A stretch of DNA of 64,000 nucleotides from contig NZ_WBKO01000001.1 in assembly GCF_032842345.1 (NCBI RefSeq), forward strand, positions 558,001 through 622,000, in the 5' to 3' direction. Source of the DNA: Methanoculleus caldifontis. GTDB lineage: Archaea; Halobacteriota; Methanomicrobia; Methanomicrobiales; Methanoculleaceae. Both the position numbers and the translations under genes were made by a program. Shown here in pieces: positions 33,932 to 38,699 of the stretch; positions within the stretch are counted from its first letter, which is position 1, and each line of letters opens with the position of its first letter. The notes beneath the pieces were generated by a model, which did not search any database, had not been told where the DNA came from, and saw only the letters and a program-made list of their open reading frames with translations.

Positions 33932-34027
33932 CTATTTAGGAACAGGTAACACAGTTTTTCCTTCAGTCTCTTTCGCCGGAGGCAGGAGAGGCATCCCTTC
34001 AAGTATGGGAAGAGCACACATTCCCAT
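33932..34027 (-). CDS. Small leader ORF, homologous to the one at 36039
   Basis: 31 residues: MGMCALPILEGMPLLPPAKE then TEGKTVLPVPK. The core LPILEGMPLLPPAK aligns in the same frame with VPCVLESMLHLPPGK of the 29-residue ORF at 36039-36128. The DNA around it carries CCGGAGGCA and TGCCTCCGG arms about 45 bp apart in both copies. Whether the peptide or the RNA structure is what is conserved is open. It precedes the exported paralogue gene at 33911. Confidence 0.45.
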   Translation of the reverse strand: MGMCALPILEGMPLLPPAKETEGKTVLPVPK

Positions 34028-34229
34028 TGCCTCCGGGCACGTGGGACATTCACCCGGACGTTTGGCAAACCGGCTGGGTGAACCTCCGCACACTGGTGCA
34101 GGCGACGCCTGCGGTACCCACGATTGTCCACTTGGACGTTTCAAGATAAACCGTTTATGGGACAAACACCAACCCAAAACCTACCTTTAGAGAGAAAAAC
34201 AGGCTGCGGCCCTGGGGATTGTGACCTCC
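34028..34229 (-). promoter_or_regulatory. Leader and degenerate promoter for the 33183 operon
   Basis: Near 34141-34160 the minus strand reads CCATAAACGGTTTATCTTGA; the GTTTATCTTGAAACGT part resembles GTTTATAGGGGAACGTT of the shared repeat, but the GTAGA and TGACAG boxes are absent. Transcription from this TATA would begin about 34122 and give a leader of roughly 95 nt before the small ORF. No other gene is seen between 34028 and the stop at 34230. Confidence 0.45.
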
Positions 34230-34784
34230 TCAAGTTGCACCGCATAGACGCATCCACCTTGAGAGATCCGTTTGAGGACCAAGGATCAACTCCGGCGGAG
34301 AAAAGAATATCGTGAACTTCACCGGGATATTCTCAATTCCTATCTCCCTTGCCCGCCCGTCAAGCATCGTATACACTGCCTCTATTGAAGGAACGTTCTT
34401 TGGCGGAGGTGGACCGCTCCAGATACTCACCCGGAGATACCCGTCAACGTCGTAGCCGAAACCGATAAGAGACCCGTTGGGATAGAGATAGCGTTCCCGT
34501 ATCTGATCTCCTATGACGGTGGTGAAGTTCTCCAGGTCCGGGTACGACGCAGTTTTTCCGCCCTTCGAGAAGGGAAGCCCTCCGAGCGTGATGATAACGG
34601 GCTCCCTTCTGTTCAGACTGACCTTTAGGAGCTCAACGTCATTTTCGGTGAATATTGGTTGCAATGATTGGAATCCCCCGACCAACGTTGCAGACCCCTG
34701 ATCGTGGAGACCTTCCGAGAGATACAACCCTGTGGAGAGGCTAATCACAAAAACAAAAATTATTGGGATCGAGAGGTTACTCAT
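34230..34784 (-). CDS. Stand-alone propeptide-like protein, probable partner/inhibitor of the adjacent protease
   Basis: 184 residues, N-terminal signal or anchor (~5-24). Residues ~95-165 (YLYPNGSLIGFGYDVDGYLR, then YTMLDGRAREIGIENIPVKF) align with the pro-region of the protease encoded just upstream (YLYPDGPIIGFGYDIEGYVG, CTMLNEEASKSGIEDVPVKV). The catalytic domain is absent. It starts 13 nt after the protease stop. Pro-regions of streptogrisin-type proteases act as folding chaperones and tight inhibitors, so a protective or maturation role is inferred. Confidence 0.72.
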   Translation of the reverse strand: MSNLSIPIIFVFVISLSTGLYLSEGLHDQGSATLVGGFQSLQPIFTENDVELLKVSLNRREPVIITLGGLPFSKGGKTASYPDLENFTTVIGDQIRERYLYPNGSLIGFGYDVDGYLRVSIWSGPPPPKNVPSIEAVYTMLDGRAREIGIENIPVKFTIFFSPPELILGPQTDLSRWMRLCGAT

Positions 34785-34797
34785 ATGTAATGCAGCC

Positions 34798-35928
34798 TCA
34801 ACCAGTTATTGGAAGAACGCCTAGTTCACTCTGCACACCAGACACTGGTGAAAAGTAATTTTCACCGTTAAAACTACCGGAGTAAAGTCCTACAACAATC
34901 CTATCATGATCCGGTTCAACATGGTAAACTGGTGCTCCACTATCTCCATTTGTAGCACTGAATGAAGCAAAGTGCTGATTGTAGAGATATTTCTTTGTAC
35001 CGCCGTCAAATACAATGTCCTTCCGTATAGTCACCCCCGATGTCGTACCTGTAACGGCTCCAGATTTGTAAACGGACAATCCTACTCCACAGTCAGCATA
35101 ATAGCCTTTCACAGTTTCCTGTACCCCTCCACTACCATAGATTTTTGCCGCAACGTTACTATATGGAACCCAAGCTGCGTCTGCATAGGAACTTTGACTC
35201 GGCCACTGAGTGTCAGCGGCCACCGTACCAACGGTATTTGATGCACTTACACTTGGTTGGTATATTGTTTCTCCAACACCATCGGAGCAATGTCCGGCAA
35301 TAACGTAACCAAGGGTTCCAGCAGTGTTTTGAGCAGCCCAACCAATTGTTCCAGTTCCAGTTGAACTGCCTAAGATCGCCTGCATCTGCACTCCTCCAAT
35401 CACGGGACGGAATCTGTCGCTTGCACTGTGAAGTACCAGGCTGTCAGGGTCGACAGATCTAACCTTGACGGGGACATCTTCTATCCCTGATTTACTTGCT
35501 TCTTCATTCAGCATTGTGCAGATCTCGTTCACTGCAATATCTGCTTTATCCTGAGAATATCCCTCCACAACACCGATTCCGACATACCCTTCAATATCAT
35601 ACCCAAAACCGATGATGGGACCGTCTGGGTAAAGGTAGGGTTTTACAGAGTCGAACATGTCGCTCGTGAGGTTGTCCAAGACATTATACCATGCACGTCG
35701 ATGCTGTGCGTCTTTGAACTCCGGCAGATAGCCACGCTTATCAATGACGTTCTCTTTCGATTTGAGGAACTCAATGGCCGTCATGTACTCATTACTTGTA
35801 AGTTCCCCACGTTCGGTGTCTATACCATACTCATCGGCAACCGGGTTCGCAGAAGCAAATCCCAGACAGGCCGTCACTGTCAGCATGAGTATAACAAATG
35901 CTGGCAGGAATTGCTGTTTTTTCTCCAT
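34798..35928 (-). CDS. Secreted chymotrypsin-fold serine protease (streptogrisin-like, S1)
   Basis: 376 residues: signal peptide (~1-27, ending GFASA-NP), pro-region (~30-170), catalytic domain (~175-376). The triad is visible: His in GYVIAGHCSDG, Asp in SSYADAAWVPY, Ser in TNGDSGAPVYH. Additional cysteines may form disulfides. Such proteases are common in actinobacteria and haloarchaea but unusual in methanogens. Strong GAGGTGA overlaps the end of the preceding 34-residue ORF. The gene is conspicuously AT-richer than its surroundings, which suggests acquisition by transfer. Confidence 0.88.
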   Translation of the reverse strand: MEKKQQFLPAFVILMLTVTACLGFASANPVADEYGIDTERGELTSNEYMTAIEFLKSKENVIDKRGYLPEFKDAQHRRAWYNVLDNLTSDMFDSVKPYLYPDGPIIGFGYDIEGYVGIGVVEGYSQDKADIAVNEICTMLNEEASKSGIEDVPVKVRSVDPDSLVLHSASDRFRPVIGGVQMQAILGSSTGTGTIGWAAQNTAGTLGYVIAGHCSDGVGETIYQPSVSASNTVGTVAADTQWPSQSSYADAAWVPYSNVAAKIYGSGGVQETVKGYYADCGVGLSVYKSGAVTGTTSGVTIRKDIVFDGGTKKYLYNQHFASFSATNGDSGAPVYHVEPDHDRIVVGLYSGSFNGENYFSPVSGVQSELGVLPITG

Positions 35929-35937
35929 TTCTTCACC

Positions 35938-36042
35938 TCAGTCACGATTGGCATCCGTAGCCATCGCCGGCACCATCATCACACCCACCAGCAGCACTGC
36001 GAAAAGCAGGGGAAGTGCCCGCGTTCCAATCTTTCTGCTCAT
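35938..36042 (-). CDS. 34-residue ORF that is almost only a signal peptide
   Basis: It begins MSRKIGTRALPLLFAVLLVG and ends VPAMATDANRD: a basic n-region, a hydrophobic core, an AMA-type cleavage site and a six-residue tail. The stop is 9 nt before the protease ATG and its ATG overlaps the stop of the 29-residue ORF (ATGA). It may be a secreted heptapeptide-scale product, a translational coupler, or the remnant of a larger exported gene. Confidence 0.55.
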   Translation of the reverse strand: MSRKIGTRALPLLFAVLLVGVMMVPAMATDANRD

Positions 36043-36128
36043 TTGCTTTCCTCTGATAACTTCCCCGGAGGCAGGTGAAGCATACTTTCAAGTACACAGG
36101 GCACGTACACTCTTTTGCCTCCGGGCAT
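36039..36128 (-). CDS. 29-residue leader ORF, homologous to the one at 33932
   Basis: MPGGKRVYVPCVLESMLHLP then PGKLSEESK, ending ATGA-overlapped with the signal-peptide ORF. Homologous in frame to the 33932-34027 ORF. The flanks CCCGGAGGCA (36115-36124) and TGCCTCCGGGG (36064-36074) are complementary, so the transcript can fold into a long-range stem over the ORF. Coding versus structural role is unresolved. Confidence 0.45.
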   Translation of the reverse strand: MPGGKRVYVPCVLESMLHLPPGKLSEESK

Positions 36129-36214
36129 GCAGGACGTTCACCCATCCGATTCGCTCTTGGCCGGGTGGACCGCCCTGCGCTTCGGGATACCGGTCCCGGT
36201 ACCCATATGTGAGA

Positions 36215-36498: not shown

Positions 36499-36531
36499 AA
36501 CGTGTAGAGAGGATCGACAGAAAACTTAAGT
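36499..36531 (+). promoter_or_regulatory. Shared envelope promoter repeat, copy H
   Basis: Plus strand: ACGTGTAGAGAGGATCGACA then GAAA; this 24-nt stretch is identical to that of divergent copy D. The TATA position differs (CTTAAGTG instead of TTTATA), and the downstream GGAACGTTGA block is absent. The start codon at 36563 is about 35 bp from the TATA. The identity of the upstream boxes despite the different core promoter marks them as the conserved, presumably regulatory, part. Confidence 0.8.
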
Positions 36532-36562
36532 GGGCATATTTGAGAAGTTCTCCCGTGGTACG

Positions 36563-36997
36563 ATGACATACAACCGCATCTTTGCACTGGTGCTTGCACT
36601 GGTCCTGATGGTGCCGCCGGCTTTTGCCGGAGGCAGCGAATGTGGCGTGAACACCGCTTCGGAAGAGGAGAGCCCGGCAGGCGATGCTGGGATACATGCA
36701 ATTTACCTCATACAGCAGGGAGAGACACACTATCACAACACGTACGCACCTCCAGGCAGCTCAACGCTGTTTGTGAACCTGGACTGGTTCGTCCCCCAGC
36801 AGTCGTTGACGCTGAAGATCATCTCGCCGAGCGGAAGCACGTACGCCTACTATCACGACACCGATCTGGATGGCCATAAAGACGCACAGATCCGCACGGG
36901 GATCACCTCGCCGGAGGCCGGAACATGGCGGTTCCAGGTCTATGGAGAAATAGTACGGGGCACGCAGGATTATACATTTGAAGCCACGGCGGGATAA
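36563..36997 (+). CDS. Small secreted protein with PPC-like beta domain
   Basis: 144 residues from ATG 36563. Signal peptide ~1-24 (MTYNRIFALVLALVLMVPPA-FAGG). The mature part is beta-rich: THYHNTYAPPGSSTLFVNLD, QQSLTLKIISPSGSTYAYYH, EAGTWRFQVYGEIVRGTQDY. This resembles bacterial pre-peptidase C-terminal (PPC) or proprotein-convertase P-like domains. YYHDTDLDGHKDAQI may bind calcium. The regulator gene 37038 follows 40 bp downstream with its own promoter. Confidence 0.75.
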   Translation: MTYNRIFALVLALVLMVPPAFAGGSECGVNTASEEESPAGDAGIHAIYLIQQGETHYHNTYAPPGSSTLFVNLDWFVPQQSLTLKIISPSGSTYAYYHDTDLDGHKDAQIRTGITSPEAGTWRFQVYGEIVRGTQDYTFEATAG

Positions 36998-37008
36998 ATC
37001 ACATATTT

Positions 37009-37016
37009 TTTATACT
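37009..37016 (+). promoter_or_regulatory. TATA box of the membrane-anchored regulator gene
   Basis: TTTTTATA, centred 26 bp before ATG 37038, predicts a leaderless mRNA and fixes this start. Transcription can therefore be independent of the secreted protein gene upstream. Confidence 0.6.
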
Positions 37017-37037
37017 TCCGGCCGCCTGTTCTTCTTA

Positions 37038-37772
37038 ATGTCGAATCCACTCCCTCTCGTGAGGAGCACACTGCTCTTCATCGTCTTCCTGTCCGCAATA
37101 ACCCCAGGGAGCGCTGTTGGCACCGGAAACAGCGAATGGGAGTTTCCGGAGGCGATATCGGACGATACGACCCCGGAATATATCTGGAATGTGCCCCTGA
37201 AACTGGTCCTGCTCGACTTTGTCTTCATGACCGCTCCCCTGCTCTTCCTCCCGGTCCAGTTCCTTATAGCAGCAGCGGCATGGCTCTGGCTCGGGCATAG
37301 AAGAATCTCCCGAAAGAATGCCCTCGATCATGATACCCGTCGTGCGGCGTACCTCTGCATCCGGGAGAATCCTGGAATTAACCATGCTACCCTCTCACGC
37401 ATGCTGGGGGTTAACATTGGAACGCTCCGGTACCACCTCGCAACCCTCTGCGAGACGGGAAAGATTCTCGCGGAGCGCGACCACGGACAGTTGCGGTATT
37501 ACGCGAACGGCAGGGCAGCCCGTGAAGGAGAGGGCTACCCCCTCAACGGGACACGGAAGCAGATCCTCGATCTCCTCGCACAGGACCCTGGAATGATGCG
37601 AAAAGAAGTTGCATCCGCGCTCGGTATCGCCGGCGCATCGGTGACATGGCATATGGCGCTGCTCATCCGGGAGGGGGCCGTACGGAGCGAGAGAGACGGA
37701 AGGATGATGCGCTACTTCCCCCGGCGGGATGTCGTATCCCGGGCAGATAGGGGCGTGGACGTAACCGGTTAG
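37038..37772 (+). CDS. Membrane-anchored double winged-helix regulator
   Basis: 244 residues. Signal-like TM (~7-28), a short outside loop, a second TM (~62-92, MTAPLLFLPVQFLIAAAAWL), then two cytoplasmic winged-helix domains: ~105-165 (NPGINHATLSRMLGVNIGTL) and ~180-235 (DPGMMRKEVASALGIAGASV), both ArsR/MarR-like. This arrangement could pass an envelope signal to DNA. Encoded in the middle of the shared-promoter operons, it is my best candidate for the factor acting on the repeat. Confidence 0.82.
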   Translation: MSNPLPLVRSTLLFIVFLSAITPGSAVGTGNSEWEFPEAISDDTTPEYIWNVPLKLVLLDFVFMTAPLLFLPVQFLIAAAAWLWLGHRRISRKNALDHDTRRAAYLCIRENPGINHATLSRMLGVNIGTLRYHLATLCETGKILAERDHGQLRYYANGRAAREGEGYPLNGTRKQILDLLAQDPGMMRKEVASALGIAGASVTWHMALLIREGAVRSERDGRMMRYFPRRDVVSRADRGVDVTG

Positions 37773-37827: not shown

Positions 37828-38511
37828 TTACCCATAGACTACGGACCCGGCCCCCGCGATATCCTGCCGGGTGAACGCAATAATACAGTCGGGAAGTTCT
37901 CCCGGAGACGGCGGAGACCCCCGGTGGGGAGTGATCGTGATGGTGTACCAACGTGCATCCGGGCCGAACGTCACCTCTTTTACCGGGCGGAACACCCCGT
38001 TCGAGACCTCGTAGAGCCTCCCCCGGGTCTCGTCGTATTGGTCCCCGTACGCGTTCACACTCACAAGAAGCCTCATACCCCGCTCCCGGAAGGAGAGATC
38101 CTCCAGAGCGATGGCGTCGACCTCCCGTAAGAGGGCGAGGGGGTGCACCCCCTGCACGGGAAACTCAAGTTTCTGCGATTTGATAGTCACGGTTCCGCCC
38201 GGCCCCACATACGCCTCGTAGGCGTGCTGCTCGCCGCCCTCCTCCCCGTAGAAGAAGAGCCATATCACCCGGACCACACCGTCTCCGGCGAGATCGACTT
38301 CCAGCCGTCGCAGTACCGCCGACTCGTTCTCGACGCCGGTCTCCCCAACGGCGATATCCCAGAGGTCCAGGACGGCCGGGTTGTATGCCGGAGAATTCAG
38401 GCAAGTTACATTCTCGATGCGGGTAACGTCCGGGGCCTCCGGCAGGACGAAGAAGTGCATGCAGGCATAGATGAGCGTTATTCCCACGACAACGGCAAGG
38501 AGCGGTCTCAT
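37828..38511 (-). CDS. Membrane-anchored exported protein, unknown function
   Basis: 227 residues from ATG 38511 (MRPLLAVVVGITLIYACMHF); GTG 38541 is an in-frame alternative. One N-terminal TM, then an outside domain with paired beta strands (EVDLAGDGVVRVIWLFFYGE, HAYEAYVGPGGTVTIKSQKL). No family recognised. Convergent with the regulator gene at 37038; no copy of the shared promoter is seen before it. Confidence 0.68.
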   Translation of the reverse strand: MRPLLAVVVGITLIYACMHFFVLPEAPDVTRIENVTCLNSPAYNPAVLDLWDIAVGETGVENESAVLRRLEVDLAGDGVVRVIWLFFYGEEGGEQHAYEAYVGPGGTVTIKSQKLEFPVQGVHPLALLREVDAIALEDLSFRERGMRLLVSVNAYGDQYDETRGRLYEVSNGVFRPVKEVTFGPDARWYTITITPHRGSPPSPGELPDCIIAFTRQDIAGAGSVVYG

Positions 38512-38699
38512 AATCGAAGTCCCCGGCCAGGTGAGATGCACGGCCTAAACCAGTAATGGGGTTGTCTGCCCTTGAAATTTTCGAGATCGGGCATCGGTTC
38601 CGGGGTTTCCTTCGCTATCGTATACACGAGGTTCGTGCGGATGGATATCCGGCGACCGCTCGTGAGAGAGGGGGCCGTGCGCCCCGGTCGCTTCGTACC

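What the first reader, a model, noticed from the sequence alone, without database searches (positions are those of the whole stretch)
34230..35928. Secreted serine protease paired with a free copy of its own propeptide domain
The 34798 protease has an intact His-Asp-Ser triad and a pro-region with YLYPDGPIIGFGYDIEGYVG. The next gene encodes a separately anchored or exported protein with the same domain (YLYPNGSLIGFGYDVDGYLR) and no catalytic part. Pro-regions of this protease class are foldases and inhibitors, so this looks like a protease with a dedicated trans-acting inhibitor, possibly a self-protection pair on the cell surface.
Basis: partly seen in the sequence, partly recalled or inferred. 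Interest (0 to 1): 0.78.

Follow-up and report, generated by a model that had tools for sequence, protein, structure and literature searches.

The report
Methanogen protease paired with anchored pro-domain
A methanogen gene pair encodes a secreted protein-cutting enzyme and, directly downstream, a membrane-anchored, non-cutting relative of that enzyme's own pro-domain; the same pairing recurs, co-inherited, in a second class of archaea, so it is probably a real enzyme-plus-partner system, although the partner domain is also often found alone.

Summary
Window 34798-35928 (-) encodes a secreted serine protease of the alpha-lytic/streptogrisin type with an intact His213-Asp250-Ser330 triad. Thirteen bases downstream, 34230-34784 (-) encodes a membrane-anchored protein with the same pro-domain (33% identity, E 1e-18) and no catalytic part. 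The domain has no Pfam or NCBIfam family.

The pairing is real and recurrent. In a second family of the phylum (another class), 17 of 17 proteases are followed by one to three catalytic-free pro-domain proteins, mostly with C-terminal membrane anchors. Proteases and partners diverged together (r = 0.85; 4 of 2304 within-genome permutations as high). In the window's order it is 6 of 22, and a single origin of all partners is rejected.

But the free domain is not tied to the protease. In Methanoculleus it occurs in 22 of 35 genomes, the protease in 2. Deletion scars show that the protease was lost while the free gene stayed under purifying selection. Related domains are also extracellular parts of membrane-bound transcription regulators, and 19 of 22 proteases in the order sit beside such a regulator gene.

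Best reading: an anchored pro-domain partner that binds and probably restrains the protease, like SpeB-Spi. Binding and inhibition are untested.

The parts
34798..35928 (-). Secreted serine protease, 376 aa: signal peptide (about residues 1-27), pro-domain, catalytic domain
   Evidence: alpha-lytic profile E about 1e-10; fold Z 22
35449..35808 (-). Pro-domain of the protease (residues 41-160; motif YLYPDGPIIGFGYDIEGYVG)
   Evidence: profile alignment A1; AF2 model pLDDT mostly above 90 in this range
34801..35415 (-). Catalytic domain (residues 172-376); triad H213 (35290-35292), D250 (35179-35181), S330 (34939-34941)
   Evidence: invariant columns of alignment A2
34230..34784 (-). Free pro-domain protein, 184 aa, no catalytic part
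34290..34649 (-). Pro-domain of the free protein (residues 46-165)
34719..34769 (-). N-terminal hydrophobic stretch of the free protein (residues 6-22): signal or signal-anchor
   Evidence: sequence; helix in model; cleavage not tested
34785..34797 (-). 13-base gap between the two genes, Shine-Dalgarno-like GAGG overlapping the protease stop
   Evidence: sequence
36978..37772 (+). Divergent gene for a membrane-anchored winged-helix regulator (family C1, HVO_0163 type), possible regulator of the pair
   Evidence: Pfam HTH_HVO_0163_N 5.8e-18; linkage to protease loci
36530..36997 (+). Small secreted PPC-like protein (family C7) found with the C1 regulator at several of these loci
35938..36042 (-). 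34-codon secretion leader MSRKIGTRALPLLFAVLLVGVMMVPAMATDANRD, remnant upstream of the protease
   Evidence: similar leaders are fused to free pro-domains in relatives

Best explanation
The locus is a two-gene operon. The first gene makes a secreted alpha-lytic-type serine protease with an N-terminal pro-domain. The second makes a membrane-anchored, catalytic-free relative of that pro-domain. The most likely mechanism is that the anchored domain binds the mature or folding protease at the surface of the producing cell, using the interaction that the pro-domain makes in cis, and restrains it there, protecting the producer's envelope. Because it harms nothing when alone, it can outlive the protease, which explains the many orphan copies. 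Shown: domains, triad, gene order, recurrence, co-inheritance, loss of the protease with retention of the partner. Predicted only: the anchors. Inferred: binding, inhibition and self-protection.
For: Same domain in both genes. In a second family, all 17 proteases found are followed on the same strand by a free pro-domain gene, gap 11-658 bases measured between open frames, mostly ending in a PGF-type or other C-terminal hydrophobic anchor. Protease and partner trees match: r 0.85 for catalytic domain against partner; only 4 of 2304 within-genome re-pairings reach it. Partners are old, 24-36% identical to their neighbour's pro-domain in 20 of 21 pairs, and do not share one origin (AU p 1e-51), so the arrangement arose more than once. 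In Methanomicrobiales, 6 of 22 proteases have the partner next door, always downstream. G063 and G073 keep the last ~20 codons of a deleted protease in front of an intact free gene. Orphan free genes have median dN/dS 0.32. The P0001 model matches the C-domain of the alpha-lytic pro region (weak). Precedents: SpeB-Spi and SUB1-ProM.
Against: Most free copies live without the protease, so its binding cannot be their only role. Three Methanomicrobiales genomes with the protease show no free copy (G133, G165, G175), so the partner is not obligatory there. The tail after the pro-domain, which reaches the active site in alpha-lytic protease, differs between free and protease-linked domains. dN/dS of the free gene is about the same with the protease (0.37, one pair) as without (0.32). 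Matched trees also follow from tight linkage alone. Several orphans are broken (G078, G062, G075).
Confidence: 0.47

Rival explanations
1. The free domain is an extracellular sensing module rather than an inhibitor. It detects the protease, its released pro-domain or a peptide, and works with a neighbouring membrane-bound winged-helix regulator that controls the locus.
For: 19 of 22 distinct protease loci in the order have a membrane winged-helix regulator gene (C1 or C2) within 1.1 kb. Related domains form the outside part of membrane winged-helix regulators in five genomes of family f3; profile-profile probability 97.3%, E 2.7e-11, against at most 0.6% for shuffled columns.
Against: The fused sensors are in genomes that mostly lack the protease. 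In the second family only two of the 17 fetched protease loci show a C1-type regulator gene (L256, L267), yet the partner is always there. A linked regulator can simply control transcription.
Confidence: 0.24
2. The free protein is a surface tether or trans-foldase: it helps the protease fold or holds it on the envelope, without inhibiting it.
For: Anchors on the partner (N-terminal here, C-terminal in the second family); pro-regions of alpha-lytic protease are foldases (established knowledge).
Against: Each protease already carries its own pro-domain, so a second foldase looks redundant; orphans are common.
Confidence: 0.19
3. The free genes are leftovers of truncated protease duplicates, kept by chance or decaying.
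For: G185 and G158 have near-copies of a protease's pro-domain that run into the first residues of the catalytic domain; G046, G074 and G079:C6 are deletion fusions; several broken copies.
Against: Purifying selection, old separate clades, 17 of 17 linkage and matched trees in a second class.
Confidence: 0.1

Closest known systems
SpeB-Spi (streptococcal C10 cysteine protease and its adjacent propeptide-analogue inhibitor)
   Same: Protease gene next to a gene for a stand-alone analogue of its own propeptide; proposed to protect the producer (as described in PMC2873492).
   Different: Cysteine protease of another class, bacterial; inhibition measured there, not here. Here the partner is membrane-anchored, recurs in two archaeal classes and often persists alone.
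SUB1-ProM and other stand-alone subtilisin propeptides (MEROPS I9)
   Same: Stand-alone propeptide-like protein, gene syntenic with its proteases, potent trans-inhibitor (PMC6993865).
   Different: Subtilase (S8) propeptide fold, eukaryotic; no membrane anchor or operon.
Alpha-lytic protease / streptogrisin (S1) zymogens
   Same: Catalytic domain: profile E about 1e-10, Z about 22. Pro-domain: weak fold match to the C-domain of the alpha-lytic pro region (4pro_C, Z 5.0, 74 residues).
   Different: No sequence match of the pro-domain to any Pfam family. I know of no free-standing pro-region partner for this protease type (memory, not a search).
Rice NAL1
   Same: Model residues 79-376, i.e. most of the pro-domain plus the protease, align with NAL1 92-446 (Z 21, 272 residues, 4.3 A).
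   Different: Plant protein, 13-14% identity; only one of 22 members gives even a weak Pfam Nal1_C match (E 0.04).

Membership tests
Alpha-lytic/streptogrisin-type S1 protease | Chymotrypsin fold closest to bacterial alpha-lytic/streptogrisin enzymes | tested here: met
   phmmer streptogrisin B 6e-6; profile alpha-lytic 1e-10; VIA Z 22
Alpha-lytic/streptogrisin-type S1 protease | His-Asp-Ser triad with GDSG | tested here: met
   H213, D250, S330 invariant in 15 homologues
Alpha-lytic/streptogrisin-type S1 protease | Proteolytic activity | not testable with these tools
   needs an assay
Alpha-lytic pro region (Pro_Al_protease) | Sequence match to the curated family | tested here: not met
   no Pfam family for either protein or for the 25 rows of A1 at a meaningful E-value
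Alpha-lytic pro region (Pro_Al_protease) | Same fold as the pro-region C-domain | tested here: inconclusive
   4pro_C Z 5.0 and 3pro_C Z 4.8, level with unrelated ferredoxin-like/KH-like chains
Protease plus propeptide-analogue inhibitor pair (SpeB-Spi type) | Inhibitor homologous to the protease's own pro-domain | tested here: met
   33% identity, E 1e-18
Protease plus propeptide-analogue inhibitor pair (SpeB-Spi type) | Adjacent gene, conserved as a pair | tested here: met
   17 of 17 in one family, 6 of 22 in the window's order; matched trees
Protease plus propeptide-analogue inhibitor pair (SpeB-Spi type) | Co-transcription | tested here: inconclusive
   13-base gap, same strand; no transcript data
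Protease plus propeptide-analogue inhibitor pair (SpeB-Spi type) | Partner inhibits the protease | not testable with these tools
   needs purified proteins or complex prediction

The most novel reading that the evidence does not exclude
A previously unnamed extracellular domain of methanogens serves three linked roles: cis pro-domain of secreted S1 proteases, membrane-anchored trans-inhibitor or immunity partner encoded next to them (retained as orphan immunity after protease loss), and sensor domain of membrane-bound transcription regulators, so that protease production, self-protection and sensing use one interaction module.
Probability: 0.25. Interest if true: 0.82.

Novelty: new variant of a known kind. 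Interest (0 to 1): 0.62.

Why it matters
If the anchored partner inhibits the protease, this would be, as far as I know, the first propeptide-analogue inhibitor system for chymotrypsin-fold proteases and the first in archaea, evolved more than once and testable in laboratory methanogens. It would give methanogens a defined protease-immunity system on the cell surface and explain an unannotated domain present in up to 14 copies per genome. The same domain in membrane regulators would link extracellular proteolysis to transcription.

Tried and rejected
Recent tandem copy: rejected for the window, because the free gene is in a separate clade. It does hold for G185. Free domain as pure junk: against purifying selection, old clades and conserved pairing. 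Other serine proteases as the constant target in orphan genomes: subtilases are patchy (20 of 35) and the HtrA-like Trypsin_2 gene is near-universal whether or not a free domain is present (31 of 35), so neither explains the pattern. Viral spread: no relative found in viral contigs. A class-level search returned only the same 232 genomes. The first profile scan of genome contigs failed for lack of a conserved stretch; the second gave 7 loci and the genus names. A 'Bacillota' contig with the pair (L221) is 99% identical to the Methanoculleus genome G079 and is judged mis-binned. One origin of the partners within the second family is not rejected (p 0.15), so I claim several origins only across the whole set. 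I could find no held paper on NAL1 structure or on these proteases. Foldseek alone gave no significant match for the free protein. No Rfam match near the pair.

Full report
OBSERVATION. P0002 (34798-35928, minus, 376 aa) has a signal peptide, a well-modelled pro-domain (residues ~41-160) and a catalytic domain. P0001 (34230-34784, minus, 184 aa) has an N-terminal hydrophobic stretch and one domain. The domains are 33% identical over 154 columns, E 1e-18, and have the same predicted order of helices and strands. The stop of the first gene and the ATG of the second are 13 bases apart, with a GAGG over the stop.

THE PROTEASE. A profile of the family finds alpha-lytic protease at about 1e-10 and streptogrisin B at about 1e-6. 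The model aligns with streptogrisin B, L5 protease and alpha-lytic protease at Z 21-22. H213, D250 and S330 are invariant among 15 homologues.

THE PRO-DOMAIN. It has no Pfam or NCBIfam family. The model of P0001 matches the C-domain of the alpha-lytic pro region (4pro_C, Z 5.0, 74 residues), but unrelated ferredoxin-like and KH-like chains score the same. The identity with that pro region is therefore suggestive, not shown. Rice NAL1 aligns over most of the pro-domain and the whole protease (Z 21).

DISTRIBUTION IN THE WINDOW'S ORDER. The window is from Methanoculleus (named relatives). Among 232 genomes of the order, the pro-domain is in 68 and the catalytic domain in 28. In the genus it is 22 against 2 of 35. 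A Fisher test links protease and free domain across genomes (OR 12, p 3e-7; classed by hand and not corrected for relatedness), but most genomes with the free domain lack the protease. Other serine proteases in the genus (subtilases, a near-universal HtrA-like gene) do not follow the free domain.

HISTORY IN METHANOCULLEUS. G079 has the same pair (85% DNA identity over 3.5 kb). G076 has the same flanks without the protease; its place holds other DNA that includes a secreted zinc protease gene. G063 and G073 keep YFPPIPGVQREPGALPLTK/T-stop, the end of a deleted protease, in front of the free gene. G046, G074 and G079:C6 join the protease's leader to the free domain. So a pair existed in ancestors and the protease was lost. 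P0001 lies in a 24-row all-free clade (SH-aLRT 100), while its neighbour's pro-domain groups with G079's protease and with G051 and G054 genes in which the catalytic domain is replaced by a C-terminal membrane segment. Orphan copies show median pairwise dN/dS of 0.32, against 0.37 for the one paired-paired comparison.

THE PAIR ELSEWHERE. In the order, a free gene follows the protease in G000, G079, G159, G185, G210 and G227 (in G227 the protease is frameshifted and a regulator gene lies between): 6 of 22. A sample of the phylum showed the domain in a second family, f8, which lies in another class; names are hidden, and PGF-type tails and genome sizes suggest Methanosarcinaceae (inference). 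Up to 14 copies occur per genome. I fetched essentially all listed f8 hits large enough to be proteases. All 17 proteases there, in 8 genomes, are followed on the same strand by a catalytic-free pro-domain gene. The list was cut near E 1e-8, so weaker loci could be missing. Catalytic-domain distances and partner distances correlate at r 0.85; re-pairing within genomes reaches this in 4 of 2304 cases, mean r 0.15. Linkage alone could produce matched trees, so this shows stable co-inheritance, not contact. A single origin of all partners is rejected (AU p 1e-51); a single origin within f8 is not (p 0.15).

LINK TO MEMBRANE REGULATORS. In the window's order, 19 of 22 distinct protease loci have a gene for a membrane-anchored winged-helix regulator within 1.1 kb; here it is 36978-37772. 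Such genes number only a few per genome, so roughly 3% would be expected (my estimate; loci are related by descent, so no exact probability is claimed). In family f3, membrane winged-helix regulators carry one or two related domains outside the membrane; profile-profile probability 97.3%, E 2.7e-11, best of 60 column shuffles 0.6%.

MECHANISM. I commit to an anchored partner that binds the protease and restrains it at the producer's surface. The supporting facts are recurrence, order, co-inheritance, predicted anchors and retention after protease loss. Binding, inhibition and protection are inferred. The asymmetry (in f8, 0 of 17 proteases without a partner, many partners without a protease) is what a harmful enzyme and its immunity protein would leave, but three Methanomicrobiales genomes have the protease and no free copy, so it is not absolute. 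Rivals are a sensing role, a tether or foldase role, and remnant status.

COMPARISON. SpeB-Spi is the closest precedent: protease gene next to a propeptide-analogue inhibitor (PMC2873492). SUB1-ProM is another (PMC6993865). What differs is the protease class, the domain of life, the membrane anchors, the repeated origin and the frequent orphan state. I found no paper describing this pair in the held library. Verdict: new variant of a known kind.

Noticed in passing
window 36040-36200 and 33955-34190: A repeat (76% alike over 86 bases) flanks the pair; the copy before the protease folds into strong hairpins (z -3.4), has no Rfam match, and relatives of it appear in 19 fetched loci, all Methanoculleus as far as named. 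It may mediate the deletions and fusions seen there.
   Followed up: partly
window 35938-36042 (-): A 34-codon secretion leader ending in a stop lies just upstream of the protease; similar leaders are fused in frame to free pro-domains in G071, G056 and G057.
   Followed up: partly
L228-L232, L237-L239: Membrane-bound winged-helix regulators, in tandem arrays in G027 and G044, with one or two pro-domain-like domains outside the membrane.
   Followed up: yes
L240, L242-L247, L250, L253: HEAT-repeat proteins with a C-terminal pro-domain, several with a C-terminal anchor, no protease of this family in the fetched stretch.
   Followed up: partly
L123:1644-3074 (+): A secreted M12-type zinc protease gene lies in the stretch that replaces the serine protease gene at the syntenic locus of G076.
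   Followed up: no
L221: Contig labelled Bacillota (JAAYAB010000313.1) is 99% identical to the Methanoculleus genome G079: apparent mis-binning.
   Followed up: yes
window 37828-38541 (-): Unannotated anchored protein whose homologue is fused to the free pro-domain in G054 (L141).
   Followed up: no
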